Shown: positions 22,409 to 50,930 of the stretch, in pieces | Numbering within the stretch: the stretch's first letter is position 1 | Layout of the letters: the number at the start of each line of letters is the position of its first letter | Source of the DNA: Amorphoplanes friuliensis DSM 7358 | GTDB lineage: Bacteria; Actinomycetota; Actinomycetes; Mycobacteriales; Micromonosporaceae | NCBI RefSeq assembly: GCF_000494755.1 | Contig: NC_022657.1 | Location: 569,501-633,500 of the forward strand | Reading direction: 5' to 3' | DNA: 64,000 nt | Program-made: the position numbers and the translations under genes | The notes under the pieces: generated by a model | Told to the model about the DNA's origin: nothing | Database searches by the model: none | What the model saw: only the letters and a program-made list of their open reading frames with translations

Positions 22409-23455
22409 CTGCGGGGCCGGGCGCAGACGGTCGAGCAGGGCGTCGGCGACCCGGGCGGTGCCGCGTCCGTCGACCGCGGACCAGGCCCGGGCGGCCAGGG
22501 CGGCGCGGCGTGACGGGCTCACCAGCAGGGTGCGCAGCAGGTCGACCGCTGCCCCCGATTCGAACGGGGACGACGTCAGGTCGGGCAGGTGCCCCAGGCC
22601 GGCCGCGAGACCGCGTGCGGTGGTCCGGCCGTACCCGATGATCTGGTTGTCGACGACCCAGACCAGGGCGGCGGGCAGGCCGAGGCAGAGGAGCTCCCAG
22701 GTCGACGTGCCGCTGGCGCTGATCGCCAGATCGGCGTCGGCGAGCAGTTTGGGCAGGTCGTCGGTCGGCGCGATGATGTCGAAGCGCTGGCCCGGTTCGG
22801 GTTCGAGCGCGAGCAGCTCGCGGCGCAGGCTGTCGTCGGCGGCCACGATCGTGGCCGTGCAGTCCATGCCGGTGCGGACCAGCAGCCGGCCCACGACCGG
22901 CGCCGCCCGGTAGGCGTCGGTCCCGCCGAAAAAGGCGACAACCTTCGGGGTACGCGCGGAGCCGCCACTCGGCGCCGTGGCGGGCCGCAAGTCGCGGACG
23001 GCGTGGCGCAGCAAGGCGTACTCGAGCCCGGCGAGCCGCACGGCACCCGGGGGCAGCGGCGGGTGCCGGCGTTCGGCGTCCAGGTTCTGGTCGACGAAGA
23101 TGTCGGCGTCCTGGTCGCGCAGGTCCCCGTCGACGATCGCCACGACGGCCCGTCCGCTCGCCCGCAGGGCACGGGAGTGCGCCGCCGGCACCTCGTAGGA
23201 GTCGATGACCACCGCGTCGAGGCCGAGCCGGTCCGCCGCGCCGACCATCCCGACGGTGTCGTAGGGCGCCGGATGCCACGGCAGGCCGCGGCTGGTCAGC
23301 TGCTGGGTCGCCCACTCGAGGCCGCCCAGGTCGCTGAGGAAGTGCACGGCCAGGCCGCGTGCGGTGAGCTCCTCGGCGAGGGCCACGCAGCGCAGCAGAT
23401 GCCCTACCCCGGTCCGTGGTCCGGCGTCGCAGCGGATCCCGATGGTGATCGTCAC
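22406..23455 (-). CDS. pseG: PseG/SpsG-like UDP-sugar hydrolase
   Basis: The protein has 349 residues with a GT-B-like fold. The N-terminal motif IRCDAGPRTGVGHLLRC contains the catalytic His (His19) of PseG proteins, and the C-terminal half has FFGGTDA and SASGTSTWELL as in that family. The established reaction is removal of UDP from UDP-2,4-diacetamido-2,4,6-trideoxy-beta-L-altropyranose, the step before condensation with phosphoenolpyruvate. The GTG start overlaps the stop of the cytidylyltransferase gene (GTGA, 23452-23455). It is the last gene of the minus-strand pse/sps operon. Confidence 0.85.
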   Translation of the reverse strand: MTITIGIRCDAGPRTGVGHLLRCVALAEELTARGLAVHFLSDLGGLEWATQQLTSRGLPWHPAPYDTVGMVGAADRLGLDAVVIDSYEVPAAHSRALRASGRAVVAIVDGDLRDQDADIFVDQNLDAERRHPPLPPGAVRLAGLEYALLRHAVRDLRPATAPSGGSARTPKVVAFFGGTDAYRAAPVVGRLLVRTGMDCTATIVAADDSLRRELLALEPEPGQRFDIIAPTDDLPKLLADADLAISASGTSTWELLCLGLPAALVWVVDNQIIGYGRTTARGLAAGLGHLPDLTSSPFESGAAVDLLRTLLVSPSRRAALAARAWSAVDGRGTARVADALLDRLRPAPQ

Positions 23456-24186
23456 GCCTGTGCGAGCTCCTTCTGCCGGACGTGCGCGTTGAGCACGGTC
23501 AGCTCCGGCCGTCCGGCGAGCCAGTCGGCGAGGGTGCGTACGGGCACCGGCCGGTCCCCGAAGTGGGCGACGACAGCCTCGATGAGCCGCCAGTCGTCCT
23601 CGGTGTCGAGGGTAAGCCTCAGGTGGGACAGATCGGGCTGCAGCGTGAGCCCGAGCACGTTGTAGTCGTACGGGTGGGAGTAGACGTACGAGGTGACGTG
23701 CGTCCGGTGGTGGTCGGTGGCCAGCTTGTCCAGCTGTCGCAGCACCTCGGTCCGCACGATCTCCACGTCGAGCCCGCGGGGGAGTGTCCGGGCGATCGAC
23801 GTGCTCAGGTAGTCCAGTGCCGGGGTGGCGGCGAAGACGTCGGTCGCCAGCATGATCAGCTCGGGGTCGAGCAGCGGGCAGTCGGCGGTGAAGCGCAGGA
23901 CGGCGTCGGACTCGTACTCGCACTCGTCGAGGACACCGAGGAAGCGGGTGAGCACGTCGTCGACCGGGCCGCGGTGCACGGCCACACCGATCGCATCGCA
24001 CTCGGCGACCACCGGGTCGTCGATCTCCTCGGTGGTGGTGGCGACGACCAGGTCGTCGAGGACACCGCTGTCACGGGCGGCCCGGACCACACGGTCGAGG
24101 ACGGTACGGCCACCGAGGCGCCGGAGCACCTTGCCCGGTAGCCGGGAGGAGCCCATCCGGGCCTGGACGATGCCGAGGGTACGCAT
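23452..24186 (-). CDS. SpsF/PseF-like cytidylyltransferase
   Basis: The protein has 244 residues. The nucleotidyltransferase signature IVQARMGSSRLPGKVLRRL at the N-terminus and FTADCPLLDP in the middle are those of SpsF-type CMP-sugar synthetases. The likely role is activation of the nonulosonic acid with CTP to CMP-sugar, the last soluble step. In Bacillus the equivalent spsF sits with spsC, spsD, spsE and spsG, the same gene set as in this window. ATG at 24186, 5 bp after the stop of the methyltransferase gene. Confidence 0.82.
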   Translation of the reverse strand: MRTLGIVQARMGSSRLPGKVLRRLGGRTVLDRVVRAARDSGVLDDLVVATTTEEIDDPVVAECDAIGVAVHRGPVDDVLTRFLGVLDECEYESDAVLRFTADCPLLDPELIMLATDVFAATPALDYLSTSIARTLPRGLDVEIVRTEVLRQLDKLATDHHRTHVTSYVYSHPYDYNVLGLTLQPDLSHLRLTLDTEDDWRLIEAVVAHFGDRPVPVRTLADWLAGRPELTVLNAHVRQKELAQA

Positions 24187-24191
24187 GAGAT

Positions 24192-25601
24192 TCAGTCCTT
24201 GAAGAGGGGGGAACGACGTGCTGCTCTGACGGCCTTGCGGGCGGCGCGGGCGCTGAACTTGGTGATGCGGTAGACGGCCCGGCCGCTGAACGCGTCGATC
24301 TGGAGGCGGGCGCGGCGCAGTTCGGCGTCGCGCAGGACAAGTTCGGTCTCGACGTAGGCGATGCGTTCGGCCGCGTCGGCCAGCTGTTCTTCGAGCCGCC
24401 GGACGTGTTCCTCGTGCTCCCGCAGGGAGTCGGGAACGACCGGGACGGCGGTGGGCACGGGCGAATCGGGGTCGAGCCCGGCCGCGGCGAGCAGGATCGT
24501 GGTCAGCGACGGCACGTCGGCCGCGCCGGGCCAGGGCTGCGCATAACCACCGGCGAGCAGCGTGTGCGCGAAGCGCTGCAGCGCTTCGGCCGGAGTGCCG
24601 TCGGCGGCGGTGGGGTCGAGCACCGCGAAGGTGTCGCCGTCGACCAGCACGTTGTCGAAGCTCGCTGTGGGCACAGCGGCGGCCCAGCCGGACAGCAGGC
24701 CACGGATGGCGGGCAGGTCGTGGCGCAGGCACGCGCCGATGAGCAGCTCCTCCAGCAGCCGGCCCTCGGGGAGATTCCCGGCGGCGTGGCCCAGCACCTG
24801 AGGGAGGACCAGGCTGCCGGCCGGACCCCGGTAGGCGAGCACCAGCCAGGACGGCGCGAGCTCGGCCCCGAGGCCGGCCCGCACTGCCGCGGCGGTGAGC
24901 CGGCGTGGGTCGCTGAGGACCGGGCGGCCCGCAAAGGCCGAGGCGACCGCTGCCGTGGCGAGCGCTCCGGCGGCTCCTTCCCGGAGTCCCGCGGGAGTGG
25001 CGGCGAACGTGGGGGTGGACGGCAGCGGCCAGGCGGCGCCGAGCCAGCCGATGCTCAGGCCCTCGGCGGTCAGACCCGCCTCGAGCCGGGCCGGGTTTCC
25101 GGGCTTGGTGCCGAACTCCCCGAGCGGACGCCAGGCGTCGGTGGTGTGCGCGAAGGTGACCGTCACCCGGTCGACGAGGCGGTGCACGCCGAGCTCGTTC
25201 TCGACCGACAGCAGCAGGGCGCCGCCGGGGCGCAGGGCCCGGCGCAGCACCTGGACGCTCTCGGCCCAGTCGTACTGCGGGCCCTCGACCGAGCACAACC
25301 GGTCGACACCGTCGAGGGCGACCACCACGTCGTACTGCTCGGTGTCGGTGAGTTTGGCCAGGCTTCCACAGAGGACGGTGACACCGCTGCCGGTCAGGGC
25401 GGCCGCGTCGGGCTCACCGCGGACGAGACAGGTCACCTCCGCGAAGCCCGCGAGGGCGGTGATCAGCTCCGGTGCGTGCGGGCCGGCCACCAGGACCCGG
25501 TCACCGAGCGGCCGGAGCAGCCCGATCAGTTCGGTCAGCAGCAGGCCGCCGACGGGCTCGCGGTCCGAGAAGCCGGCCATCTCGCCACCGATGAGCTTCA
25601 T
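24192..25601 (-). CDS. Class I SAM-dependent methyltransferase-like protein with C-terminal coiled coil
   Basis: The protein has 469 residues. The N-terminal 200 residues read as a Rossmann methyltransferase fold (DRVLVAGPHAP, YDVVVALDGVD, LRRALRPGGALLLSVEN), although the glycine-rich SAM motif is weak (VAGPHAPEL). The middle region is alpha/beta and unrecognised. Residues about 405-440 form a coiled coil (EEHVRRLEEQLADAAERIAY), followed by a very basic C-terminus. The start overlaps the upstream stop by ATGA. In a glycan operon this suggests O- or N-methylation of a sugar, with the coiled coil for assembly; the acceptor is unknown. Confidence 0.68.
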   Translation of the reverse strand: MKLIGGEMAGFSDREPVGGLLLTELIGLLRPLGDRVLVAGPHAPELITALAGFAEVTCLVRGEPDAAALTGSGVTVLCGSLAKLTDTEQYDVVVALDGVDRLCSVEGPQYDWAESVQVLRRALRPGGALLLSVENELGVHRLVDRVTVTFAHTTDAWRPLGEFGTKPGNPARLEAGLTAEGLSIGWLGAAWPLPSTPTFAATPAGLREGAAGALATAAVASAFAGRPVLSDPRRLTAAAVRAGLGAELAPSWLVLAYRGPAGSLVLPQVLGHAAGNLPEGRLLEELLIGACLRHDLPAIRGLLSGWAAAVPTASFDNVLVDGDTFAVLDPTAADGTPAEALQRFAHTLLAGGYAQPWPGAADVPSLTTILLAAAGLDPDSPVPTAVPVVPDSLREHEEHVRRLEEQLADAAERIAYVETELVLRDAELRRARLQIDAFSGRAVYRITKFSARAARKAVRAARRSPLFKD

Positions 25602-26422
25602 GCGGGCACCGCCGTCCGGGCGCCGGTCCAGCCGAGGATCGCGCGCAGCTCGGCGGGTGAGGCGAGGGTGCCCGCACCGAGCTCGTACAGCGCGGAGGCG
25701 GTGGCGTCGGCGGGGTCCGGGTGTGTGCCGTGCAGCTCGGGCCACTGGCGGCGGATGCGTTCGGCGGTCACGCGGACCTCGCCGTCGAGGTGCATCGGGT
25801 CGCCGTAGACGGCCGGTTCGCAGCCGGTGGCAGCGCCGTAGAGGACCGCGCTGCTGAGCCGGTTGGAGGCGACGCGGCGGTGCGCCCGCAGCTCCGCGAG
25901 CTGGTTGTGCAGGAACTTCGTGTCGGTGTCGAGCCAGCGCAGCCCGCGGTACCCGTGACAGATGACCCGCCCGGCCTGCTCGTAGCGCCGCCGCACCCTG
26001 TCGTCGCGGAACTCGTGCCAGTAGAGGCAGAAGGTGACCGGCCCGTCCTCGGTCTCGAGGATCTCGTCGATCAGCCGCTGGTGGTCACCGGCGATGTGCT
26101 GGCCCTCCCAGCCGTGGAACGGGTACCAGATCGTGCCTTCACGGGGTGCCTGCGAAGCCGGCTGTGTCGACAGCAGATAGAGGAAGGGGGCGCCGATCAC
26201 GGTCGCGTACCGGCGGCCCATCGACCAGGCGCGCCGCCGCGTCTGCTCCGACCAGACGAAGATCGGACGACCCGACACGTACGGCGTCCCGGCGCCGAGT
26301 CCGTCCACCACGTTCCAGCCGTGCTGCACGTACCCGTCGATCCGTGGTGGATGTTCGGGGTCGAGCCCGCAGTAGCCGGCCAGCACGTGCGCGTGGCCGT
26401 AGAAGTGGTTGGCGTGGTGCAC
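25598..26422 (-). CDS. Unrecognised protein of the pse/sps operon, possibly a glycosyltransferase
   Basis: The protein has 274 residues. The GTG at 26422 lies 4 nt after the aminotransferase stop, with GGAGAG upstream. It has an alpha/beta pattern rich in aromatic residues (HHANHFYGHAHVLAGYCG, IWYPFHGWEGQ, FCLYWHEFRD), a VASNRLSSAVLYGAATG segment and no membrane segment. These features are compatible with a GT-B-type glycosyltransferase or a polysaccharide-synthesis protein, but I cannot name a family. Its place between aminotransferase and methyltransferase genes makes a sugar-related role likely. Confidence 0.6.
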   Translation of the reverse strand: MHHANHFYGHAHVLAGYCGLDPEHPPRIDGYVQHGWNVVDGLGAGTPYVSGRPIFVWSEQTRRRAWSMGRRYATVIGAPFLYLLSTQPASQAPREGTIWYPFHGWEGQHIAGDHQRLIDEILETEDGPVTFCLYWHEFRDDRVRRRYEQAGRVICHGYRGLRWLDTDTKFLHNQLAELRAHRRVASNRLSSAVLYGAATGCEPAVYGDPMHLDGEVRVTAERIRRQWPELHGTHPDPADATASALYELGAGTLASPAELRAILGWTGARTAVPA

Positions 26423-26426
26423 GGGC

Positions 26427-27551
26427 TCAGCTCTCCAGAATCGTGCGCAAGGTGTCCACGACGCGGTCCTGGTCCGCGTCGCTGAGGTCGACGAACAGCG
26501 GCAGTGACAGCTGCTCGGCGTAGAAACCCTCGGCGACCGGGCACATGCCGCGGCGGTACCCGAGGTCCTCGAACGCCGGGTGCCAGTACGCGGGGATGTA
26601 GTTGACCTGCACGCCGATGCCCGCCGACCGCATCCGGTCGTAGACCTCACGCCGCCGGCCGTCCTGGATCCGTACGGGGTAGAGGTGACGCATCGGGTCG
26701 GCCCACGCCCGCCGGACCGGCAGTCGCAGCCCCGGCACGCCCGCGAGCAACTCGTCGTACCGTTCGGCCAGGGCGGTCCGGCGTGCCTTGAACGCGGACA
26801 GCCGCCGCAACTGCGAGCTGCCGAGCGCGCAGAGCACGTCCGGGAGCCGGTAGTTGAGGCCGAACTCGGGGACCTCCTGGTGCCAGCCGCCCTCGTCCGG
26901 GTGCCGCAGCATCGCCTTGTCCCGGGTGATGCCGACCGTGCGGAACCTCCGGGCCCGGTCCAGCAGCTCGGGAACCGTGCCGGCGACCGCGCCACCCTCA
27001 CCCGTGGTCAGGTTCTTCGTCGGGAAGAACGAGAACGTGGTCAGGTCGGCGAGCGTCCCGACCGGGCGACCGTGGTACGTCGACCCGATCGCGTGCGCGG
27101 CGTCGGCGATCAGCACCGCACCGGCCTGATCGGTGACTTTGCGCAGCTGGTCGTACTCGGCCGGGTGCCCGGCGTAGTCGACGGCGGTGACGGCCCTGGT
27201 CCGCGAGGTGACCGCGGCTTCGGCAGCCGCCGGGTCGAGGTTGGCGGTGTCGTCCTCGACGTCGGCGAAGACCACGGTCGCGCCGAGCATGGCCGCGGTC
27301 GACGCCGTCGCCACGAACGTCATCGGCGTGGTGACGACCTCGTCGCCCGGGCCGACCCCGGCCGCCGCGTACGCCGTGTGCAGCGCCGCGGTGCCGTTGA
27401 TGACCGCGACGCAGGGCGCACCGGCGATCCGCTCGAGATCGTTCTCGAACAGGTCGACGCGGGGACCGGTGGTGAGCCAGTCGCTGCGCAGTGCCGTCGA
27501 GACGGCTTCGATGTCCGCTTCGGTGACGTTCTGCCGCCCGTAGGGCAGCAT
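26427..27551 (-). CDS. pseC: PseC-like aminotransferase (DegT/DnrJ/EryC1 family)
   Basis: The protein has 374 residues and is a PLP-dependent sugar aminotransferase. The Schiff-base Lys is Lys179 in SFFPTKNLTTGEGG; INGTAALH and IADAAHAIGS bind PLP. PseC converts the 4-keto sugar made by PseB to UDP-4-amino-4,6-dideoxy-N-acetyl-beta-L-altrosamine, with glutamate as usual donor. I placed the ATG at 27551, sharing one base with the upstream TGA (TGATG), rather than further upstream. Confidence 0.87.
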   Translation of the reverse strand: MLPYGRQNVTEADIEAVSTALRSDWLTTGPRVDLFENDLERIAGAPCVAVINGTAALHTAYAAAGVGPGDEVVTTPMTFVATASTAAMLGATVVFADVEDDTANLDPAAAEAAVTSRTRAVTAVDYAGHPAEYDQLRKVTDQAGAVLIADAAHAIGSTYHGRPVGTLADLTTFSFFPTKNLTTGEGGAVAGTVPELLDRARRFRTVGITRDKAMLRHPDEGGWHQEVPEFGLNYRLPDVLCALGSSQLRRLSAFKARRTALAERYDELLAGVPGLRLPVRRAWADPMRHLYPVRIQDGRRREVYDRMRSAGIGVQVNYIPAYWHPAFEDLGYRRGMCPVAEGFYAEQLSLPLFVDLSDADQDRVVDTLRTILES

Positions 27552-28531
27552 CACTTCTCCTCGAGCAGGGCGCTCATCTCGTCGACCTCGAGCCACAGGT
27601 CGTTGTTGTCCGACCGGTAGTTGAAGCCGTCGGCGACACGCTCGCCACCCTCGGGGGTCTGGTATCCCCAGCTCGCGACGACCGGCTGCACCACGTAACG
27701 GTCGGGGAAACGCAGCGTGCGACGGCTGTCGTCGGCCGCGATCATCTCCTCGTGCAGCTTCTCGCCCGGCCGCATGCCCATCTCGTGCGTCGGGGCGTCC
27801 GGCGCGACGGCCTCGACCAGGTCGAGGATCCGCATGCTGGGGATGCGCGGCACGAACAGCTCGCCACCCTGCATCACGTCGAACGAGTCGACGACGAACT
27901 TCACGGCCGCGTCGAGGCTGATCCAGAAGCGCGTCATCCGCTTGTCGGTGATCGGCAGGCTCTTGCCCTCGGCGTTGAGCCGGCGGAACAGCGGCACGAC
28001 CGAACCGCGGCTGCCCATCACGTTGCCGTACCGCACGACCGCGAACCGGGTCGGGTGCGTGGCGGCGTAGTGGTTGCCCGCGATGAACAGCTTGTCGGCG
28101 ACCAGCTTGGTGGCGCCGTACAGGTTGATCGGGCTGGAGGCCTTGTCCGTGGACAGGGCGACGACCCGCTGGACGCCGGCGTTGATCGCGGCGTCGATGA
28201 CGTTCTGCGAGCCGTTGATGTTCGTCGCGACGTACTCCGAGGGGTTGTACTCGGCGGTGTCGACCTGCTTCAGGGCGGCGGCGTGCACGACGTGGTCGAC
28301 GCCGTGCATGGCGCGGGCCAGGCGGTCACGGTCGCGGATGTCGCCGATGAAGAACCGCAGGCGCGGGTCGTCGCCGAACATCTGCCGGACCTCGTACTGC
28401 TTCAGCTCGTCGCGGGAGAACACGACGATGCGCTGCGGGTCCAGGTTGGCCAGCGCGTGACCCAGGAAGGCCTTGCCGAACGACCCGGTCGCGCCGGTGA
28501 CCAGGATCGACGATCCACTCAACACACTCAT
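27551..28531 (-). CDS. pseB: PseB-like UDP-GlcNAc 4,6-dehydratase (inverting)
   Basis: The protein has 326 residues and is an extended SDR. NAD(P)-binding TGATGSFGKAF, then HAAALKQVDTAEYNP, which is typical of the inverting PseB/FlaA1 short type, and LYGATKLVADKL in the active-site region. The reaction is dehydration plus C5 inversion of UDP-GlcNAc, the first committed step. The ATG at 28531 follows GGGAG. It is the first gene of the minus-strand operon and faces the acyl carrier protein operon across a 185-bp divergent promoter region. Confidence 0.9.
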   Translation of the reverse strand: MSVLSGSSILVTGATGSFGKAFLGHALANLDPQRIVVFSRDELKQYEVRQMFGDDPRLRFFIGDIRDRDRLARAMHGVDHVVHAAALKQVDTAEYNPSEYVATNINGSQNVIDAAINAGVQRVVALSTDKASSPINLYGATKLVADKLFIAGNHYAATHPTRFAVVRYGNVMGSRGSVVPLFRRLNAEGKSLPITDKRMTRFWISLDAAVKFVVDSFDVMQGGELFVPRIPSMRILDLVEAVAPDAPTHEMGMRPGEKLHEEMIAADDSRRTLRFPDRYVVQPVVASWGYQTPEGGERVADGFNYRSDNNDLWLEVDEMSALLEEK

Positions 28532-28716: not shown

Positions 28717-28962
28717 GTGATTGAGCTGCAGAGACTGCGTGAAGCGTTCCGGACGTCGCTGGATCTGCCCGCCGATGCACCCGTCGACGACCTGCACTAC
28801 CAGGACAACGAGAAGTGGGATTCGCTCGCGCACATGTCATTGGTCGCGGCCATCGAAGATGAATTCTCGGTAATGATCGACACCGACGACGTCATCAATA
28901 TGTCCAGCTTCGGCGAGGCCATGCGAATTCTCGGTAAATACGGGGTGGACTTCAATGAGTGA
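28717..28962 (+). CDS. Acyl carrier protein
   Basis: The protein has 81 residues, is acidic and four-helix. The phosphopantetheine attachment Ser36 lies in KWDSLAHMSL, and DEFSVMIDTDDV is the usual helix III region. The GTG start follows GGAG at a spacing of 7. It is a dedicated carrier protein, not the housekeeping AcpP, judging by its place at the head of a seven-gene operon with a ketoreductase, an AMP-ligase and LuxE/LuxC-type enzymes. The likely cargo is a fatty or hydroxy-fatty acyl group. Confidence 0.88.
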   Translation: MIELQRLREAFRTSLDLPADAPVDDLHYQDNEKWDSLAHMSLVAAIEDEFSVMIDTDDVINMSSFGEAMRILGKYGVDFNE

Positions 28963-29692
28963 ACGGGTTGCTCTCGTCACGGGAGCCTCCCGCGGTATCG
29001 GTCTGGCCGTCGCCCGGCGTCTCGCCGAGCAGGGCCACGATCTTGTCGTGCACGGCCATCGAGCGGACGTCATCGCGGAGGTCGCGGCCGAGCTGGCCGG
29101 CAAGTACGCGGTGACGGTCGTCCCGGCGCACGGTGACATCGCCGACCCGGAGACCAGCCGAGTGCTGATGCGGGTGGCGTTCGAGAACTTCCGGCGGCTC
29201 GACGCGCTGGTGGTCAACGCCGGCACCCACGCGGCCGGTGTCCTCGGCATGACCGACGACGCCACCGTGCAGCGGCTCTTCGCGGTCAACGCGATCGGTG
29301 CCGCGCACACGCTGCAGGGGGCGGTACGGCTGCTCGGCCGTGGGCGTACCCCGGCGGTGGTGCTCGTGTCGTCGATCACCGGGACCGAGGGTGCGGCCGG
29401 CCAGGCCATCTACGCCGCGTCGAAGGCCGCGGTCAGCGGCCTGGCGCTGTCCGCGGCGAAGGAGCTCGGGCCGCGCGGCATCCGCGTCAACGCCGTGGCG
29501 CCCGGTTTCATCACCACCGACATGCTCGACACGCTCGACGATCGCGGCCGCGCGCAGCGGATCGCGAGCACCGCGCTCGGCCGGCTGGGCGAGGCCGGCG
29601 AGGTTGCCGACGTGGTGGCGTTCCTGCTCTCCGACCAGGCCCGGTTCGTGACCGGGCAGGTGCTCGGGGTCGACGGAGGACTCTCGCTGTGA
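28955..29692 (+). CDS. FabG-like 3-oxoacyl-ACP reductase (SDR)
   Basis: The protein has 245 residues, close to housekeeping FabG in length. TGASRGIG cofactor motif, NAG, catalytic Ser in VSSITG and YAASK, and C-terminal VTGQVLGVDGGLSL. It overlaps the ACP gene by 8 bp. The adjacent carrier protein makes an acyl-ACP substrate more likely than a free sugar. No ketosynthase is present in the operon, so the 3-oxoacyl substrate would come from elsewhere. Confidence 0.87.
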   Translation: MSERVALVTGASRGIGLAVARRLAEQGHDLVVHGHRADVIAEVAAELAGKYAVTVVPAHGDIADPETSRVLMRVAFENFRRLDALVVNAGTHAAGVLGMTDDATVQRLFAVNAIGAAHTLQGAVRLLGRGRTPAVVLVSSITGTEGAAGQAIYAASKAAVSGLALSAAKELGPRGIRVNAVAPGFITTDMLDTLDDRGRAQRIASTALGRLGEAGEVADVVAFLLSDQARFVTGQVLGVDGGLSL

Positions 29693-31020
29693 ACCTGTTC
29701 CATCCCGAGGCCCGGGTGCTCGACGCGGCGACCGGCGAGGTCCTGGACCGGACCCGGGTCGACGCGGCGGCGGCCGCCTTCGAGAGCCGTCCGCCCGGCG
29801 TTGTGTTCGCGTTGATGCCGACCGAGCTGGACGCCGTTGCGCTCTATCTCGGCGCGTTCGCCGCTCACCGCCCGATCGCGCTGCTGGACCCGGACCTTGA
29901 CCACACCGTGCTGCTCGACCTCGTCGAGCGGTTCGCTCCGGCACTGGTCACCGGCGTGACCACGGGACCGCCCGACGGTTACACCGCCGAGGACGGCTGG
30001 TGGGTGCGGGACGAACCGGCGGTGACACCGCACCCCGACCTGGGCCTGCTGCTCACCACCAGCGGTTCCACGGGCAACCCGAAACTGGTCCGGCTCTCCC
30101 GTGCGGCCGTGCTGGCCAACGCCGCGGCCATCGGCGAGAGCCTCGGCATCACCGCGGACGACGTCGCGCCGACCACGTTGCCGCTGTTCTACACGTTCGG
30201 CCTGTCGGTGCTCAACAGCCATCTGCTGCGCGGCGCCACGGTTGTCCTCGAACGCACCGGCATCCTGCAACGCGACTTCTGGCAGGCCGTCGAAAGCTAC
30301 GGCGTCACCTCGCTGGCCGCTGTGCCCTACCAGTACGAGATGCTGCGCCGCCTGCGCTTCGACCCGGCGAAATACCCCGCGCTGCGGACGCTCACCCAGG
30401 CCGGTGGCCGGTTGCGCACCGCGCTGGTCGAGGACTTCGCGCAGCGGATGGCGTCCGTCGGCGGCCGGCTCTTTGTCATGTACGGCCAGACCGAGGCGAC
30501 CGCCCGCATGGCCGTGCTGCCACCCGGCCACCTGCCCGGCAAGCTCGGCTCCGCCGGCCTGCCGATCCCCGGCGGCTCCTTCTCGATCGCGGACGGCGAG
30601 GTCGTTTTCACCGGACCCAACGTCATGCTCGGGTACGCCGAGAGCAGCGCCGATCTCGCCCGCGGTGACGACCTCGGCGGTGTCCTGCGCACCGGCGACC
30701 TGGGCCACCTCGACGACGACGGTTTCCTCTTCCTCACCGGGCGGTCGAAGCGCATCGGCAAGGTCTTCGGCGTGCGCGTCAACCTCGACGACGTCGAGCG
30801 CACGCTGGCCGCGCACGGGGCCGTCGCGGCGGTGGCGGGCGACGACAAGCTGCACGTTTTTGTCGAGGGCGCCGACTCCGAGGCCGCGCGCTCGGTCCGC
30901 GGCGAGCTGGCGGGATTCCTCGACACCCACTTCTCCGGCCTGGACGTGCGCGGCATCGAAGCGCTGCCGCTGCTGCCCACCGGAAAGATCGACTACCGGT
31001 CGCTGGAGGCCCTGGTATGA
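29689..31020 (+). CDS. AMP-forming acyl ligase (ANL superfamily)
   Basis: The protein has 443 residues, shorter than typical acyl-CoA synthetases (500 or more). The P-loop LTTSGSTGNPK, YGQTEA, RTGDLGHLDDDGFLFLTGR and the C-terminal catalytic Lys in LPTGKIDY are all present. It should activate a carboxylic acid as acyl-AMP and pass it to CoA or to the ACP encoded two genes upstream. The compact N-terminus resembles that of ligases working with carrier proteins. The GTG start overlaps the FabG-like stop (GTGA). Confidence 0.87.
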   Translation: MNLFHPEARVLDAATGEVLDRTRVDAAAAAFESRPPGVVFALMPTELDAVALYLGAFAAHRPIALLDPDLDHTVLLDLVERFAPALVTGVTTGPPDGYTAEDGWWVRDEPAVTPHPDLGLLLTTSGSTGNPKLVRLSRAAVLANAAAIGESLGITADDVAPTTLPLFYTFGLSVLNSHLLRGATVVLERTGILQRDFWQAVESYGVTSLAAVPYQYEMLRRLRFDPAKYPALRTLTQAGGRLRTALVEDFAQRMASVGGRLFVMYGQTEATARMAVLPPGHLPGKLGSAGLPIPGGSFSIADGEVVFTGPNVMLGYAESSADLARGDDLGGVLRTGDLGHLDDDGFLFLTGRSKRIGKVFGVRVNLDDVERTLAAHGAVAAVAGDDKLHVFVEGADSEAARSVRGELAGFLDTHFSGLDVRGIEALPLLPTGKIDYRSLEALV

Positions 31021-32054
31021 GTCTGTTCACCTTGGCCCAGCCCGAGCGTGAGGCGTTGCTGCTCAAGGAGTTGTCCGGGCTGGTCGAGCACCACCGGGCC
31101 AACTGCGAGCCCTACGACCGCATCCTCGCGGCCAACGGCTACACCGAGGCCGGCTCGGTCGCCGGGCTGCCCTGGCTGCCGGTGCGGCTCTTCAAGAACC
31201 TGGAACTGAAGAGCATCCCGGACGACGAGGTCTTCAAGGTCCTGACCTCCAGCGGCACCACCGGCGAGGTCAGCCGCATCTACCTGGACAAGGCCGCTGC
31301 CGCGACGCAGACCCGCCAGCTCGGTGCGACCCTGCAGACCGTGCTCGGCCCGAAGCGCCTCCCGATGCTGCTGGTCGACACCAAGGCGCTGCTCAAGGAC
31401 CGCCGCTCGTTCAGCGCCCGCGGCGCCGGGGTCCTCGGCATGGCCACCTTCGGCCGCGACCACGTCTGGGCCTTGGACGAGGAAGGCGTGCCGGACCTCG
31501 AAGCTCTGCGCGGCTTCCTGGCCAAGCACGGCAACGCGCCGTTTCTCATCTTCGGCTTCACCTACCTGGTCTGGCTGCATCTCTACGAGGTCGCGCGGGA
31601 CAACGGGCTCGACCTGAGCAACGGCATCCTGATCCACTCCGGCGGCTGGAAGAAGCTCGTCGACCAGGCGGTCTCCCCGGAGGAGTTCCGTCGCCGGCTG
31701 GCCCGGGACACCGGCCTGGTGAACAGCCACAACTTCTACGGGATGGTCGAGCAGATCGGCACGATCTTCCTCGAGGGGCCCTCGGGTGGCTCGCTCTACT
31801 GCCCGGACTTCGCGGATGTGATCATCCGCAACCCCGAGACCTGGGAAGAACAACCGGTCGGTGAGCCCGGCCTGATCGAGGTCGTGAGCACCCTGCCGAC
31901 CTCGTACCCCGGACACGTCCTGCTGACCGAGGACCTGGGTGTGGTGCACGGCGTCGACGACGGCGACTGGCCCGGCAAACGTTTCTCCGTGCTCGGGCGC
32001 CTGCCGCGCGCCGAGGCCAGGGGCTGTTCCGACACGTACAAGGAGGCGGCATGA
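31017..32054 (+). CDS. LuxE-family acyl-protein synthetase
   Basis: The protein has 345 residues. The ATP-binding motif LTSSGTTG (about residue 80) and the segments GRDHVWALDEEG and NSHNFYGMVEQIGTIF are those of the LuxE / acyl-protein synthetase family. In luminous bacteria LuxE activates a fatty acid as acyl-AMP, carries it on a Cys and hands it to LuxC. No luciferase (luxA/B) or thioesterase (luxD) gene is nearby, so the role is not light emission. It overlaps the ligase and LuxC-like genes by ATGA on both sides. Confidence 0.86.
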   Translation: MSLFTLAQPEREALLLKELSGLVEHHRANCEPYDRILAANGYTEAGSVAGLPWLPVRLFKNLELKSIPDDEVFKVLTSSGTTGEVSRIYLDKAAAATQTRQLGATLQTVLGPKRLPMLLVDTKALLKDRRSFSARGAGVLGMATFGRDHVWALDEEGVPDLEALRGFLAKHGNAPFLIFGFTYLVWLHLYEVARDNGLDLSNGILIHSGGWKKLVDQAVSPEEFRRRLARDTGLVNSHNFYGMVEQIGTIFLEGPSGGSLYCPDFADVIIRNPETWEEQPVGEPGLIEVVSTLPTSYPGHVLLTEDLGVVHGVDDGDWPGKRFSVLGRLPRAEARGCSDTYKEAA

Positions 32055-33235
32055 GGTTCCGGTTCGGGGATCCTGGTGATCTCACAGCGCCGTCGCAGGA
32101 CCGGCTCACCGTCGGCGACCCGCGGGTGGTCGACTTCCTGTCCCGCTTCGCGCGCAAGCTGCTCGCGCCCGCGGTCGCCCGGCGCCACCCCGAGCTGGGC
32201 TCGCTCGGATACTTCCTGCGCCCGGCCGAGCTGACCCGGGCCGCCGCCCGCCTGGAGAGGCCCGACGCGTTCGTCTTCCCGCGCGGCAACGTCTTCCACG
32301 TGCCACCGGCCAATGTGGACACCATCTTCGTCTACTCGTGGGCGCTGTCCGCGCTGGCCGGCAACCACAATGTCGTCCGGATCTCGGCGCGGTCGGCCGG
32401 TGCGGCGGAAACCGTGCTGGAGACGCTGAACGCGACCCTCGAGGACGCCGATCCGGTGATCGGCCGCACTCAGCGCATGGTCACCTACGGGCGGGACGAC
32501 ACGATCACGGCCGCCCTCAGCGCCTGGTGCGACCTGCGGGTGATCTGGGGCGGCGACAGCGCCGTCACCACGATCCGGAAGCACCCGCTGCGCCCGTCGG
32601 CGCGCGATCTGACGTTCCCCGACCGCACGTCCTGGGCCGCGTTGTCCGTACCCGGGTGGCGGGCTGCAGATCCGGCGGCCAAGCGCGCCGCGGCGACCGG
32701 TTTTGCCAACGACGCGTACTGGTTCGACCAGGCTGCCTGTTCGTCACCGCGCACGGTGTTCCTGGTCGGTGGTGACCCGGCCGGTGTCGCCGACGAGTTC
32801 CTCGAGCTGCTCAGCGAGGTTGTCGCGCGGCGCGGCTGGGCCGTCGACGCGGCGATGGCGGTGGAGAAGCGGGTCAACGCGTACGGGCTCGCGGCCTCGG
32901 GTGCGGTGACCGCGATGGCGTTCCCGGAGAACGCCGTGACCTCGCTGGCGCTGGCCGAGGTGGCCGACGCACCGCGGCGGTGGATCGGCGCCGGGGCGTT
33001 CCCGTTCGCGAGCGTCGGCAAGCTCGAGGACCTGGTGCCGGCGATGAACCGGCAGGACCAGACGTTCAGCCACTTCGGCTTCGCACCGGCCGAGCTGAAG
33101 GCGTTCGCCCTCGCGCTCGGTGGCCGCGGCGTCGACCGCATCGTGCCGTTCGGGTCGGCGCTCACCTTCAGCGCGATCTGGGACGGCTTCGACCTGCCGC
33201 GGGAGTTCACGCGGCTCACCACGCTCGAGACATAG
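32051..33235 (+). CDS. LuxC-family acyl-CoA/acyl-protein reductase
   Basis: The protein has 394 residues of the aldehyde-dehydrogenase fold. The nucleophile Cys230 in DQAACSSPRTVFL matches the ACSSP motif of LuxC reductases; PPANVDTIFVYSWALSALAGN is the usual N-terminal landmark (positions about 85-105). LuxC reduces the LuxE-bound acyl group with NADPH to an aldehyde. With the LuxE-like gene immediately upstream this forms a two-component fatty-acid reductase of unknown destination. Eight bases separate it from the glycosyltransferase gene. Confidence 0.87.
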   Translation: MRFRFGDPGDLTAPSQDRLTVGDPRVVDFLSRFARKLLAPAVARRHPELGSLGYFLRPAELTRAAARLERPDAFVFPRGNVFHVPPANVDTIFVYSWALSALAGNHNVVRISARSAGAAETVLETLNATLEDADPVIGRTQRMVTYGRDDTITAALSAWCDLRVIWGGDSAVTTIRKHPLRPSARDLTFPDRTSWAALSVPGWRAADPAAKRAAATGFANDAYWFDQAACSSPRTVFLVGGDPAGVADEFLELLSEVVARRGWAVDAAMAVEKRVNAYGLAASGAVTAMAFPENAVTSLALAEVADAPRRWIGAGAFPFASVGKLEDLVPAMNRQDQTFSHFGFAPAELKAFALALGGRGVDRIVPFGSALTFSAIWDGFDLPREFTRLTTLET

Positions 33236-33243
33236 GGGACCCC

Positions 33244-34227
33244 GTGGAGGGCACTGTTCTGTCGGTCGTCGTGCCGATGTACAACGAGGAAGCCGTGATT
33301 CCCGCGCTGGTCGAGCGGCTCCGGCCGGTGCTCGACAATCTCGGTGTCACCTACGAGGTGGTGGCTGTCGACGACGGCAGCCGCGACCGTACGGCTCACC
33401 TGCTCTTCGAGTACGGACGCACCTGGCCGGAGCTGCGCCTGGTCAAACTGCGGCGCAACAGCGGGCACCAGGCGGCGCTGACCGCGGGTCTGCAGCGCGC
33501 CAAGGGCGACTGGATCGTCAGCATCGACGCCGACCTGCAGGACCCGCCGGAGACCATCGCGGAGATGCTGCGGGTGGCCCGTGAGCAGGGACTCGACGTC
33601 GTCTACGGGGTGCGCTCCGACCGCAGCACCGACACCGTGTTCAAGCGGCACACCGCCGGCGCCTACTACCGGCTCATGCGCCGGATGGTCGGCGGCGACG
33701 TGCCCGCCCAGGCCGGCGACTTCCGGCTGCTCAGCCGTGATGTGGTCGAGGTGCTGAAGAAGCTGCCCGAGCGTGCGCCGGTCTACCGGTTGCTGGTGCC
33801 GTCGCTCGGTTTTGCCTCGGCCGAGGTCACCTACGCGCGGGAACGCCGCGCCGCCGGTGAGACGAAGTACCCGCTGCGCAAGATGGTCGCCCTCGCCTGG
33901 GACAGCACCGCGAACTTCTCCGCGGCACCGCTGCGCATCGCGACCTGGCTCGGCGCGTTCTCGTTCGTGGCCTGCATCGCGCTGATGATCTTCGGCGTGG
34001 TGGTCTGGGCCAACGGCACGGTCATCCCCGGCTGGACGTCGCTCTTCCTCGCGGTCCTGCTGCTCTCCGCGGTGCAACTGATCTGCCTCGGGTTGCTCGG
34101 CGAGTATGTGGCCCGGATCTACCGCACGGTGCAGGACCGGCCGACATTCCACATCGGATTCGACTCGGCCGCCGAGGCTCAGCGGATCGAGATCCCGCAG
34201 CAGAGGTCGGCGGCTGCCCTCCCGTGA
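33244..34227 (+). CDS. Polyprenyl-phosphate glycosyltransferase (GT2, GtrB/ArnC/DPM1-like)
   Basis: The protein has 327 residues; GTG start after AGGGG. GT2 motifs LSVVVPMYNEE, VAVDDGSRD and SIDADLQDPPE are present, then two C-terminal membrane helices (about 235-300). This is the layout of GtrB/ArnC enzymes, which move a sugar from a nucleotide donor to undecaprenyl phosphate on the cytoplasmic face. The next gene encodes a large membrane protein that could be the transferase using that lipid-linked sugar outside. It overlaps it by GTGA. Confidence 0.87.
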   Translation: MEGTVLSVVVPMYNEEAVIPALVERLRPVLDNLGVTYEVVAVDDGSRDRTAHLLFEYGRTWPELRLVKLRRNSGHQAALTAGLQRAKGDWIVSIDADLQDPPETIAEMLRVAREQGLDVVYGVRSDRSTDTVFKRHTAGAYYRLMRRMVGGDVPAQAGDFRLLSRDVVEVLKKLPERAPVYRLLVPSLGFASAEVTYARERRAAGETKYPLRKMVALAWDSTANFSAAPLRIATWLGAFSFVACIALMIFGVVVWANGTVIPGWTSLFLAVLLLSAVQLICLGLLGEYVARIYRTVQDRPTFHIGFDSAAEAQRIEIPQQRSAAALP

Positions 34228-36494
34228 CCACGCTGCTGACCCGGCCGGCTCCGGCGCCGGCCGCCGCGTCCCGCCCCGCGCTGCGTCCCTGGCTCGCCGC
34301 CGTACCGTGGCTGCTTGTTGCCGTGGTGCTGGCGGGCGCGCTCTACCGCGCGGACGTCCCGGGCCGGGAGATCGCGACCTACGGCCTCTACTTCCTGGCC
34401 GGGGTCGTCCCGCCCGGCACACTGGTCCACCGGGCGATCCGCGGCAGCCGCGGCAACCTGCCCGAGGACCTCGGCTACGGCGCCGCGACCGGCCTGTTCG
34501 TGCAGATCGTCGGCTGGGCGCTGGCCGCGGCCACCGGCCTCCAGGCCCTGCTGATCGGCTGGCCGGTGCTCGTGCTGGTCGCCTTCGTCGCCGTGCCCCG
34601 GCTGCGGCAGCACTGGCGGATCGCCGAGCCCGAACCGCTTCCCCTGCGCTGGTCCTGGCTGATCTGCGGGGCGCTGCTCGGCGTGATCGCCTGGGGTGCG
34701 GCGGCGTGGTCGGGCACCCCGCTGCCACCGGCCGACGCGGTCTACTACCAGGACCTGATGTACCACCTCGCGCTGGTGCAGGAGATGACCCGCGCGATGC
34801 CGTTCGAGGTGCCGCAACTCGCCGGTGACACCCTGCGCTACCACTACCTGTCCGACGCCGACATGGCCGCCGCCAGCATGATCACCGGAATCTCGCCGGC
34901 GACCGTGCTGCTCCGCCTCTGGATGGTGCCGATCGGTGCGACCGCGGTGCTGGTCGTCGCGGCACTGACCCGCGAACTCAGCGGCAAGTGGTGGGCCGGT
35001 CCGCTGGCCGGTGGTGTCGCGTTCGCAGGCATGCCGCTCACCCTCGGCGCCCCGATCGACGCGTACGGCGGCAGTTCGCTGTCCTACGCGAGCCCGTCAC
35101 AGACGTACGCGATGCCGCTGCTCGGTCTGCTCGTGGCGATCGTGGTCGACCTGCTGCGCGGACGGAAGCTCGGCCCGGCCTCGTTCCTCGCACCACCCCT
35201 GGCCCTGGTCTGTGCGGGCGCCAAGTCGAGCGCACTGCCGCCCCTGATCGCCGGTCTGGGCCTGGCCGCCCTGGTCGTCTGGTGGCGGGACAAGAGGTTT
35301 CCCCGGGCGGCGGCCGGCCTTCTGCTGGCGCTGACCGTGGTGATGCTGATCGGCACCCGGCTCTTCGCCGGTGGTGGTGCCGGAACGCTCGGCGTGCAGC
35401 CGTTGAGTCTGCTGCGATGGATGGAGCCGTATTCCAAGACGCTGGGTACCGGCGACGGTGTGGCACCGGGCGGGCTGATCGCCCCGGGACTGCAGGGGAT
35501 CGGGCTGACCGGTGGCGGGTTTGTCGCCGGAGTCATCGGCTGGTGGGTGCTCATGCAGTCGCCCCGGCTGCTCGGGCTGCTGTCGCTGCGGCGGCGCTCG
35601 GATCCGGCGGCGTGGCTGCTCGGCGGCATGACCGTGGCCGGTGCCGGCGCGGCCTGGGCCCTGTGGCACCCGTCGGCCAGCCAGCTCTACTTCTTCCTCT
35701 GCGCCGCGCCCTTCGGGGTGGTGCTCACGGTCTGGATGCTCGCCGAGCGGACACGCCACTGGTGGGTACCGGTGGCCGGACTGCTCGCCGGTGCACTGTG
35801 GAGTGTCGTCGCGCCGGTGGTGGCGGCTCCGGCGCGGAACACCCTGGGCGGGTGGGCGTGGGCTCTCGCCGTACCGGTGCTGCGGACCTTGGGTCTGGTG
35901 GTGATCGCCGCGATCCTGGTGCTGGCCCTGCGCCGCAGGTTCCGGGTCCTGGCCACCGCGGTGACCGCCGCGGTGCTGGGGGCGAGTCTCGCGACCGGCC
36001 TGGCGGGCTTCGTCCGCGTCCTGGGACAGGAGACAGGTCAGCCGTCGACGGCTCGCATGGTCACGCAGGAGGAGATGGGCGCAGCGCTGTGGCTCGACGA
36101 GCATGCGGCCGACGACGACGTGGTGGCGACCAACGTGCACTGCACGCCGATGGCGCGGTACCAGCCGTGTGACGCCCGGGCGTTCTGGGTCGCCGGGCTC
36201 GGTGGCCACCGCACGCTGGTGGAGAGCTGGGCCTACTCGGACGAGACCGTGGCGGCCAACGGCGTCGGCGGCCTCAAGTACGTCCTCCAACCGCCGCCCG
36301 ACCAGGCCCTGTACGACCTGAACCAGCGCGCTTTCACCACCGCGGATCCGGCGGACCTGACCCGTCTCCGTCAGCAGTACGGCGTGAAGTGGCTCTTCGC
36401 CGACACCCGGGCCGGAGAGGTCTCGCCGGACCTGGCCCGGCTGGCGCAGCTGCGCCACACCAGCGGGCCGGTGACGATCTACGAACTGCGCTGA
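34224..36494 (+). CDS. Large polytopic membrane protein, GT-C glycosyltransferase-like
   Basis: The protein has 756 residues. About 13-14 hydrophobic segments fill residues 25-610; a soluble C-terminal domain of about 145 residues follows, facing outside by prediction. The loop with ADAVYYQDLMYHLALVQEM before the fifth segment carries acidic residues as expected for a GT-C active site, and the C-terminal ALWLDEHAADDDVVATN pattern occurs in YfhO/GT-C-like proteins. The likely role is transfer of a lipid-linked sugar to a surface acceptor, paired with the GT2 upstream. It is the last gene of the operon; its end overlaps the convergent DUF4180 gene by 16 bp. Confidence 0.7.
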   Translation: MTTLLTRPAPAPAAASRPALRPWLAAVPWLLVAVVLAGALYRADVPGREIATYGLYFLAGVVPPGTLVHRAIRGSRGNLPEDLGYGAATGLFVQIVGWALAAATGLQALLIGWPVLVLVAFVAVPRLRQHWRIAEPEPLPLRWSWLICGALLGVIAWGAAAWSGTPLPPADAVYYQDLMYHLALVQEMTRAMPFEVPQLAGDTLRYHYLSDADMAAASMITGISPATVLLRLWMVPIGATAVLVVAALTRELSGKWWAGPLAGGVAFAGMPLTLGAPIDAYGGSSLSYASPSQTYAMPLLGLLVAIVVDLLRGRKLGPASFLAPPLALVCAGAKSSALPPLIAGLGLAALVVWWRDKRFPRAAAGLLLALTVVMLIGTRLFAGGGAGTLGVQPLSLLRWMEPYSKTLGTGDGVAPGGLIAPGLQGIGLTGGGFVAGVIGWWVLMQSPRLLGLLSLRRRSDPAAWLLGGMTVAGAGAAWALWHPSASQLYFFLCAAPFGVVLTVWMLAERTRHWWVPVAGLLAGALWSVVAPVVAAPARNTLGGWAWALAVPVLRTLGLVVIAAILVLALRRRFRVLATAVTAAVLGASLATGLAGFVRVLGQETGQPSTARMVTQEEMGAALWLDEHAADDDVVATNVHCTPMARYQPCDARAFWVAGLGGHRTLVESWAYSDETVAANGVGGLKYVLQPPPDQALYDLNQRAFTTADPADLTRLRQQYGVKWLFADTRAGEVSPDLARLAQLRHTSGPVTIYELR

Positions 36495-46887: not shown

Positions 46888-46912
46888 GTACCCGTAACGC
46901 CGATCGTCAACC
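46888..46912 (-). promoter_or_regulatory. Sigma-B-type promoter GGTT-N15-GGGTAC for csbD
   Basis: On the minus strand GGTT (46909-46912) and GGGTAC (46888-46893), 15 bp apart, match the Streptomyces sigma-B consensus GNNT-N14-16-GGGTAC/T. The box lies 36 nt before the CsbD start, and the -35 overlaps the end of the upstream GGDEF-EAL gene. Confidence 0.65.
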
Positions 46913-50462: not shown

Positions 50463-50930
50463 GTGCTGCGTCCCGCTGCCGATGCCGACCGCGACACCGT
50501 GCTCGCCTGGCGCAACCACCCCGACGTGCGCGCGGTCAGCCTGACCACCCACGTGATCGCGCCCGAGGAACACGCGAAGTGGTGGGACGTGGTCCTCGAG
50601 GACCCGGACCGGCACGTGCTCATCCACGACGACAGCGGCGTTGTCATCTTCGACTGCCGGGAGGACCCGCCGAGCTGGAGTTTCTACCTCGACGTCGAGG
50701 GACTGGGGGCGGGTCTGCTCGCGGGCTGGATGCGGCTCGAGAAGGAAGCCGTCGCGTACGCGTTCGGTGAGCTGGGGCTGACCCGGCTGGGCGGGGAGAC
50801 GCTCGCCACCAACAAACAGGTGCTCGCGCTGCACCGGCGCTTCGGGTTCACCGAGGTGCGCCGGTACGAGCGACTGATCGACGGCACGCCACAGGTTGTG
50901 GTGTGGACCGAAAGAGGGATACCGCAGTGA
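50463..50930 (+). CDS. pseH: PseH/SpsD-like N-acetyltransferase (GNAT)
   Basis: The protein has 155 residues. GNAT fold with LRPAADADRDTVLAWRNHPD at the start and RFGFTEVRRYERL at the end, as in PseH. It should acetylate the 4-amino group of the PseC product to give the 2,4-diacetamido sugar used by PseG. The end overlaps the synthase gene by GTGA, so it is tightly linked to the same pathway. GTG start. Confidence 0.82.
   Translation: MLRPAADADRDTVLAWRNHPDVRAVSLTTHVIAPEEHAKWWDVVLEDPDRHVLIHDDSGVVIFDCREDPPSWSFYLDVEGLGAGLLAGWMRLEKEAVAYAFGELGLTRLGGETLATNKQVLALHRRFGFTEVRRYERLIDGTPQVVVWTERGIPQ

What the first reader, a model, noticed from the sequence alone, without database searches (positions are those of the whole stretch)
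28717..36494. Lux-type fatty-acid reductase operon without luciferase, coupled to lipid-linked glycosyl transfer
Seven tightly packed genes encode an ACP (Ser36), a FabG-like reductase, an AMP-ligase, a LuxE-like acyl-protein synthetase, a LuxC-like reductase (Cys230), a GtrB-like GT2 and a GT-C-like membrane protein. No luxA, luxB or luxD, and no ketosynthase, is present. The set can activate an acid, hold and reduce a 3-oxoacyl group on ACP and make an aldehyde. It is back to back with the pse operon. Inference: it makes an acyl- or alkyl-type decoration, or a lipid-aldehyde intermediate, for a nonulosonate-containing surface glycan. Acyl-ACP-based decoration of flagellin sugars is known in Pseudomonas (hydroxybutyryl on a viosamine derivative); a LuxE/LuxC route for this would be new to my knowledge.
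Basis: partly seen in the sequence, partly recalled or inferred. Interest (0 to 1): 0.82.

Follow-up and report, generated by a model that had tools for sequence, protein, structure and literature searches.

The report
Malate-to-dihydroxybutyryl tag for pseudaminic acid
This soil actinobacterium carries a five-gene set, found often in the same gene order in very different bacteria and lying back to back with genes for a sialic-acid-like sugar, that is predicted to turn malate into a small hydroxyacyl tag and to put it on that sugar, which would give a product to so-called fatty-acid genes of flagellar sugar islands.

Summary
In detail: seven packed genes (28717-36494) encode an ACP, SDR, AMP-ligase, LuxE- and LuxC-type enzymes, a lipid-sugar GT2 and a large membrane protein, divergent from pseB; the window holds a full predicted pse set. 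The novelty claim fails: the five genes beside pse genes are published for Aeromonas flagellin islands, the families also for enterobacterial ones, both read as a 'liposugar' route. The fatty/alkyl reading is not supported. Best reading is the Vibrio cholerae O1 tetronate logic: LuxE/LuxC and SDR turn malate into 2,4-dihydroxybutyrate, ligase and ACP activate it, an N-acyltransferase transfers it. Support: conserved catalytic residues; GNATs are the commonest flanking family; 5 of 80 loci carry an LDH-family enzyme with the Arg recalled as malate mark; dihydroxybutyryl for one acetyl of pseudaminic acid gives 376.148, matching the 376.14 Da sugar of an Aeromonas strain with the module. In the genus the module tracks NeuB (28/28 vs 0/8); no Maf match in 200 family genomes, so a cell-surface glycan is likelier than flagellin. 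No reaction was tested.

The parts
28717..28962 (+). acyl carrier protein (Ser36)
   Evidence: PF00550 1.5e-5; F11, Y28, W34, D35, S36, H39, L42 near-invariant among 132 best hits
28955..29692 (+). SDR; predicted semialdehyde reductase
   Evidence: PF13561 6.5e-55; below FabG equivalog cut-off; S140/Y153/K157 near-invariant among 131 best hits
29689..31020 (+). AMP-forming ligase; predicted hydroxyacyl-ACP ligase
   Evidence: PF00501 5.7e-37; TSGxTGxxK, D337, R352, K433 near-invariant among 136 best hits
31017..32054 (+). LuxE-type acyl-protein synthetase (Cys337)
   Evidence: PF04443 4.7e-45; RGCSD aligns with KGCSL of 7xc6 LuxE; near-invariant among 142 best hits
32051..33235 (+). LuxC-type thioester reductase (Cys230)
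   Evidence: PF05893 1.8e-27; DQAAC aligns with DQQAC of 7xc6 LuxC; near-invariant among 139 best hits
33244..34227 (+). GT2, PgfS/ArnC-like polyprenyl-phosphate sugar transferase with C-terminal TM helices
   Evidence: NF047588 188.8 of 500 bits, NF007986 172.9 of 529 bits, both below cut-off; about 3 TM by hydropathy
34224..36494 (+). membrane protein, about 13 TM, GT-C-like (function inferred)
   Evidence: no Pfam or NCBIfam match; hydropathy; BLAST relative in 31 of 58 family loci, often after LuxC
27551..28531 (-). PseB
   Evidence: TIGR03589 491.5 bits over cut-off 407.75
26427..27551 (-). PseC
   Evidence: TIGR03588 395.1 bits, cut-off 423.5
25598..26428 (-). GT-B-like protein, candidate glycosyltransferase
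24192..25601 (-). protein of unknown function, methyltransferase-like by eye
   Evidence: no Pfam or NCBIfam match; BLAST relative in 35 of 58 family loci
23452..24186 (-). cytidylyltransferase, predicted PseF
   Evidence: PF02348 5.3e-30; TIGR03584 31 of 205.7 bits
22406..23455 (-). PseG-like
   Evidence: TIGR03590 139.3 of 153.55 bits
50463..50930 (+). PseH-like GNAT; predicted N-acyltransferase
   Evidence: TIGR03585 68 of 93.1 bits; PF13302 1.4e-8
50903..51967 (+). PseI
   Evidence: TIGR03586 474.5 bits over cut-off 340.25
51986..53569 (+). GT-B protein, KpsC-like; candidate CMP-nonulosonate transferase

Best explanation
The five genes ACP, SDR, AMP-ligase, LuxE and LuxC most likely form a pathway that makes a short hydroxyacyl-ACP, probably 2,4-dihydroxybutyryl (3-deoxytetronyl) from malate, and the acyl group would then be put by a PseH-type GNAT on the amino group of the pseudaminic-acid precursor predicted for the pse genes around it. 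Inferred steps: LuxE activates the outer carboxylate of malate as AMP ester and Cys337 thioester; LuxC (Cys230) reduces it to the semialdehyde; the SDR reduces that to 2,4-dihydroxybutyrate; the ligase loads it on ACP Ser36; the GNAT N-acylates. CMP activation and KpsC/TagF-like GT-B enzymes would carry the sugar into a cell-surface glycan, with the GT2 and the membrane protein adding a lipid-linked sugar outside. Shown by calls: gene set, order, near-invariant catalytic residues, linkage to pse genes and acyltransferases. Not shown: any reaction.
For: Each of the five enzymes has a job and no ketosynthase, luxD or luxAB is needed; two separate carboxylate-activating enzymes are explained. V. 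cholerae O1 precedent: VC0248-VC0252 are assigned to tetronate synthesis (PMC3441752), ligase RfbL is described as activating 2,4-dihydroxybutanoic acid for CoA or carrier RfbK (PMC12208996), RfbN holds a LuxE domain (PMC4772473). Order ACP-SDR-ligase-LuxE-LuxC in 51 of 58 family loci and in 36 of 80 loci elsewhere, 11 more of these with SDR and ACP swapped; all five families in 68 of 80. Catalytic residues near-invariant. Of 140 ORFs called next to the module in at most 75 of 80 loci (some spurious), 35 are GNATs, the commonest family, and 7 hexapeptide acyltransferases. Five of 80 loci have an LDH-family gene after LuxC, in one with a gene between; all five have Arg where 1ldn has Gln, recalled as the malate mark. 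Mass: Pse5Ac7Ac residue 316.127 with one acetyl replaced by C4H6O3 = 376.148, against 376.14 Da in A. piscicola AH-3, a Group II strain; it also has an unexplained 102 Da unit, and C4H6O3 is 102.032. A. caviae Sch3N, described without the large kind of island (absence of the module inferred), is tabulated with plain Pse5Ac7Ac (PMC3958885). In the genus, LuxE and strong NeuB coincide, 28 of 28 vs 0 of 8.
Against: No enzyme assay or structure exists for this locus. In the window PseH lies about 14 kb past the operon, and the solved H. pylori PseH uses acetyl-CoA, not an ACP (PMC4363471). The closest solved relative of the LDH-family neighbour, 1y6j, is named L-lactate dehydrogenase yet has Arg at the same place, so that mark is not proof. 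376.148 is shared by isomers such as O-methylglyceryl; within 0.012 Da eight formulas fit, four of them CHNO, C4H6O3 the only one of C, H and O alone. A review calls the AH-3 lateral-flagellin derivative 'probably phosphorylated', though phospho-Pse computes to 396.09. In 26 of 80 loci no acyltransferase was found by BLAST, and 12 of 80 lack one or more of the five (some on short contigs, several without the SDR). Outside the genus LuxE goes less clearly with NeuB (14 of 30 vs 27 of 134, p 0.0045) than with flagellin (16 of 30 vs 10 of 134, p 5e-8). Five family loci have LuxE-LuxC without the other three beside them. No LDH-family gene was found in the family loci or the window. I had no V. 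cholerae sequence to compare; that its alcohol dehydrogenase is of another family than this SDR is recalled.
Confidence: 0.57

Rival explanations
1. The module makes another short N-acyl group, for example 3-hydroxybutyryl (ligase plus FabG-type reduction of acetoacetyl-ACP) or O-methylglyceryl, for the same amino sugar.
For: The SDR is of the FabG fold; hydroxybutyryl on sugars is known (recalled). O-methylglyceryl has the same mass as dihydroxybutyryl.
Against: 3-hydroxybutyryl leaves LuxE and LuxC without a role, and its Pse form is 360.153, not 376.14. Of 80 loci chosen by LuxE, LuxC is in 78 and the ligase in 80, the SDR in 69.
Confidence: 0.2
2. As first proposed: a true fatty acid is reduced to an aldehyde or alcohol that makes an alkyl or lipid part of the glycan.
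For: Family names LuxE and LuxC; published readings of the same genes as 'liposugar' or fatty-aldehyde channelling.
Against: Curated long-chain models score 60 of 550 and 39 of 750 bits; no long acyl mass among the Aeromonas values seen; N-acyltransferases are the commonest neighbours; a ligase and ACP for the finished acid would be superfluous.
Confidence: 0.08
3. The acyl group goes on flagellin sugar in this organism, as in Aeromonas.
For: The genome has flagellin; outside the genus LuxE is enriched with flagellin, 16 of 30 against 10 of 134, not corrected for relatedness.
Against: PF01973 (named MptE-like; that Maf belongs to it is recalled): 0 of 200 family genomes, 9 of 10 module-bearing genomes of other groups picked by hand. 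All 8 LuxE-less genomes of the genus keep flagellin; 8 genomes have LuxE and strong NeuB but no flagellin. The flagellin genes lie about 1.2 Mb away if the contig is circular.
Confidence: 0.2
4. The acyl group decorates a different amino sugar handled by the GT2 and membrane protein, and the pse genes are only neighbours.
For: Other family genomes pair the module with a DegT-type aminotransferase and a GNAT but no strong NeuB.
Against: In the genus LuxE and strong NeuB come and go together, 28 of 28 vs 0 of 8; the divergent pseB-module arrangement recurs in the genus and in several other genera.
Confidence: 0.15

Closest known systems
Aeromonas Group II polar flagellin glycosylation island, orf1-3, luxE, luxC (PMC7874193)
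   Same: Same five gene families beside pse genes; a GT2 gene follows luxC
   Different: There with maf genes and, in many strains, next to flagellar genes; here no Maf-family match, flagellin distant, and the GT2 is of the lipid-linked PgfS/ArnC type followed by a large membrane protein. The passages seen give no product beyond a possible liposugar.
Enterobacteriaceae flagellin glycosylation islands with Acp, FabG, CaiC, LuxE, LuxC (PMC4875605)
   Same: Same gene families
   Different: Read as a liposugar component; different host group; the passage seen does not say that pse genes are beside them
Vibrio cholerae O1 tetronate genes VC0248-VC0252
   Same: ACP, ligase, LuxE-domain protein and acylation of an amino sugar
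   Different: Acceptor is perosamine in an O antigen; the alcohol dehydrogenase there is of another family (recalled), here an SDR
lux fatty-acid reductase (LuxC-LuxE, structure 7xc6)
   Same: LuxC and LuxE families and active-site cysteines
   Different: No luxD, luxA or luxB found among the 37 window proteins scanned; scores far under the long-chain models

Membership tests
Aeromonas-type FGI acyl module | ACP, SDR, AMP-ligase, LuxE, LuxC together in order | tested here: met
   six Aeromonas loci (L126, L129, L130, L134, L135, L139) show the same order
Aeromonas-type FGI acyl module | beside pseudaminic acid genes | tested here: met
   pseB and pseC divergent, pseF and pseG follow, pseH and pseI at 50.5-52.0 kb
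Aeromonas-type FGI acyl module | linked to flagellin glycosylation through Maf | tested here: not met
   0 of 200 family genomes by PF01973, control 9 of 10
V. cholerae-type tetronate pathway | ligase, ACP and LuxE-domain protein together | tested here: met
   that the V. cholerae set has these is from passages of PMC3441752, PMC12208996 and PMC4772473
V. cholerae-type tetronate pathway | alcohol dehydrogenase of the same family | not tested
   SDR here; the V. cholerae enzyme is recalled to be of another family, no sequence was fetched
V. cholerae-type tetronate pathway | product is 2,4-dihydroxybutyryl on an amino sugar | tested here: inconclusive
   mass fit in a relative only
lux bioluminescence operon | LuxE and LuxC reach the curated long-chain models | tested here: not met
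   60.2 of 550 and 39.2 of 750 bits
pseudaminic acid pathway | PseB and PseI over curated cut-offs | tested here: met
   491.5 vs 407.75; 474.5 vs 340.25
pseudaminic acid pathway | PseC, PseG, PseH, PseF over curated cut-offs | tested here: not met
   395.1/423.5, 139.3/153.55, 68/93.1, 31/205.7 bits; assigned by best match and context

The most novel reading that the evidence does not exclude
The LuxE/LuxC 'fatty-acid' genes in nonulosonate and other glycan clusters across bacterial phyla form one family of malate-fed carboxylate-reductase modules that make N-hydroxyacyl groups: a C4 dihydroxybutyryl group in the basic form, explaining the 376 Da pseudaminic acid of Aeromonas, and a C6 polyhydroxyacyl group in the form that adds a two-subunit transketolase.
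Probability: 0.43. Interest if true: 0.8.

Novelty: new variant of a known kind. Interest (0 to 1): 0.62.

Why it matters
A gene set that annotators call luminescence or fatty-acid genes would become a predictable source of a small acyl group on bacterial sialic-acid-like sugars. That gives a product to 'fatty acid' genes in flagellin islands, offers a structure for a 376 Da sugar and a 102 Da unit left unassigned in the Aeromonas paper, and gives actinobacterial cell surfaces a testable new decoration. Each enzyme step can be assayed with simple acids such as malate and 2,4-dihydroxybutyrate.

Tried and rejected
Fatty aldehyde or lipid product: set aside on scores, masses and context. Flagellin as the target here: disfavoured. 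F. psychrophilum 3,5-dihydroxyhexanoyl route: that set has ketosynthases, none found here (passages). Shewanella sfm genes: SO_3261-3265 are NeuB, a TPP enzyme, an SDR, a methyltransferase and an ATP-grasp protein, no LuxE/LuxC among them (passages). E. coli genomes with the Kosakonia module DNA: no match. Phage records: one weak LuxE match, 22% identity. Papers in which the sought terms did not occur: PMC10059132, PMC13317340, PMC7371886; PMC9290775, PMC6388019 and PMC7439481 gave nothing used (passages). Alcohol dehydrogenases in loci without SDR: looked at by eye only, nothing firm. Rfam: no match in the window. The Treponema denticola flagellin glycan (450.2 Da, methoxy-trihydroxyhexanoyl nonulosonate) is recalled; of 72 papers found, the 12 listed did not hold 'trihydroxy'; trihydroxy-methoxyhexanoyl Pse computes to 450.185.

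Counts and dropped rows: one search used lists copied by hand; flagellin = 62 genomes over cut-off (G042 dropped); strong NeuB = 69 of 79 genomes with a match, ten with weaker matches (E 3.6e-39 or worse) dropped; LuxE = 58 genomes, including G020 whose LuxE is of a different type (L095). Fisher tests ignore relatedness. Flank tally: one ORF each side if within 600 bp and at most 700 aa, from the 75 of 80 loci in which LuxE was labelled; some are antisense ORFs or genes between module members. Residue conservation is over the best BLAST hit per locus of 143 loci, which for the SDR may be another SDR. The first module count stopped with a script error after the 80-locus part; the family part was rerun. 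On re-reading I lowered the main confidence from 0.60 to 0.57 and the novel case from 0.45 to 0.43, because 1y6j shares the Arg.
Full report
What is there. The window lies at 569501-633500 of a 9,376,071-base contig; the named close relatives of its LuxE are Actinoplanes and allied genera. The seven genes are real and nearly all overlap. A pse operon runs the other way from 28531: PseB, PseC, a GT-B-like protein, an unknown protein, a cytidylyltransferase and a PseG-like protein. PseH-like GNAT and PseI follow at 50463-51967, with a GT2 before and a KpsC-like GT-B protein after. PseB and PseI pass the curated cut-offs; PseC, PseG and PseH fall short, and PseF is assigned by family and context.

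Active enzymes. Over the best hit per locus, ACP Ser36 (132 hits), SDR Ser140/Tyr153/Lys157 (131), ligase loop, Asp337, Arg352 and Lys433 (136), LuxE Cys337 (142) and LuxC Cys230 (139) are near-invariant. LuxE Cys337 and LuxC Cys230 align with cysteines of the 7xc6 LuxE-LuxC complex (that these carry the acyl group is recalled). Neither protein comes near the long-chain luminescence models.

Already in print. Passages of PMC7874193 and its Discussion, part 1 of 2, describe ACP, 3-oxoacyl-ACP reductase, AMP-dependent synthetase, luxE, luxC and a following GT2 between pse genes in the Group II islands of 98 Aeromonas strains (the GT2 in 97). A passage of PMC4875605 lists the same families in flagellin islands of 71-80 enterobacterial strains. 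Both suggest a liposugar. So the gene set beside pse genes is not new; the actinobacterial setting and the product are open.

How wide. All five families are in 68 of 80; the order here is in 36 of 80, with SDR and ACP swapped in 11. In the own family 51 of 58 loci have this order, five have LuxE-LuxC only, one a variant, one an unrelated LuxE. Over the phylum only 3 of 396 genomes, the own one included, match at E 1e-40, so the trait is sporadic.

What it goes with. Own-family survey, 200 genomes: LuxE in 58, flagellin over cut-off in 62, strong NeuB in 69, PF01973 (recalled as the Maf family) in 0 against 9 of 10 module-bearing genomes of other groups picked by hand. Within the genus 28 of 36 have LuxE; the same 28 have strong NeuB and the other 8 do not; all 36 have flagellin. 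Outside the genus, LuxE goes with flagellin in 16 of 30 against 10 of 134 (p 5e-8) and with NeuB in 14 of 30 against 27 of 134 (p 0.0045); relatedness is not corrected for, and here the link to flagellin is the stronger one. Eight genomes have LuxE and NeuB but no flagellin; sixteen have LuxE without strong NeuB, several of these with a DegT-type aminotransferase in the locus and a GNAT next to the module. In the 80 loci: NeuB in 38, DegT without NeuB in 17, neither by BLAST in 25; an acyltransferase directly at the module in 47, elsewhere in 7, none found in 26. The commonest Pfam family among 140 flanking ORFs is GNAT (35). The pattern is acylation of amino sugars, nonulosonates most often.

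Which acyl group. V. [quoted passage not shown] VC0248-VC0252 are assigned to it (PMC3441752, passages), RfbL is described as activating 2,4-dihydroxybutanoic acid and attaching it to CoA or RfbK (PMC12208996, passages), and RfbN has a LuxE domain (PMC4772473, passages). The same logic uses all five genes here. Two checks were open to me. First, substrate: five of 80 loci have an LDH-family gene after LuxC, in one case with a gene between; HMMER aligns the residue that is Gln in 1ldn with Arg in L169 and the same Arg is in all five. That this change makes a malate dehydrogenase is recalled from classic work on the Bacillus enzyme. Against it: 1y6j, the best match, is named L-lactate dehydrogenase and also has Arg there. 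Second, mass: swapping one acetyl of Pse5Ac7Ac for C4H6O3 gives 376.148. The sugar on A. piscicola AH-3 flagellin, a Group II strain, is 376.14, kept when fgi-1 is deleted; that strain also has an unexplained 102 Da unit (PMC7874193). A. caviae Sch3N is tabulated with plain Pse5Ac7Ac (PMC3958885, passages), though PMC7874193 speaks of a putative derivative there; that Sch3N lacks the module is inferred from its island type. An isomer such as O-methylglyceryl would weigh the same. The original 2012 mass paper is not held. The solved H. pylori PseH uses acetyl-CoA (PMC4363471, passages), so use of an ACP substrate by a PseH-type GNAT is an inference.

Verdict. Observation confirmed; novelty claim and lipid reading not upheld; best reading is a tetronate-type N-acyl module for pseudaminic acid. 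A search for papers joining dihydroxybutyryl and pseudaminic or nonulosonic acids found 169 with two or more of the terms; among the 25 listed none holds both (listing only).

Noticed in passing
L125, L138, L151, L153, L167, L173, L175 and others: About 16 of 80 loci hold genes for a two-subunit transketolase with the module; a C2 extension of the aldehyde to a C6 polyhydroxyacyl group would fit.
   Followed up: partly
L159:9296, L166:9298, L168:9293, L177:9289: A type II thioesterase (PF00975) sits between ligase and LuxE in several clostridial and one spirochaete locus.
   Followed up: partly
L158:13083-14864, L160:13159-14952: Two Rhizobiaceae loci without a detected SDR have an IlvB-like TPP enzyme (by eye) and a NeuB near the module, reminiscent of Shewanella sfm genes.
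   Followed up: no
L054, L065, L069, L071, L078: Five genomes of one sister genus have LuxE-LuxC with pseF and pseG but no ACP, SDR or ligase beside them.
   Followed up: no
window 36479-37290 (-): DUF4180 protein and a helix-turn-helix protein directly after the operon.
   Followed up: no
window 19860-22085 (+) and 46907-49234 (-): GGDEF-EAL type proteins near both pse groups (the second confirmed by Pfam, the first read by eye).
   Followed up: no
L100 (NZ_LT559118.1): In Nonomuraea the pse genes, relatives of both unknown pse-operon proteins, the module and a GT-C-like protein lie in one cluster of about 20 kb; the record is an 11.85-Mb 'plasmid', probably a chromosome.
   Followed up: partly
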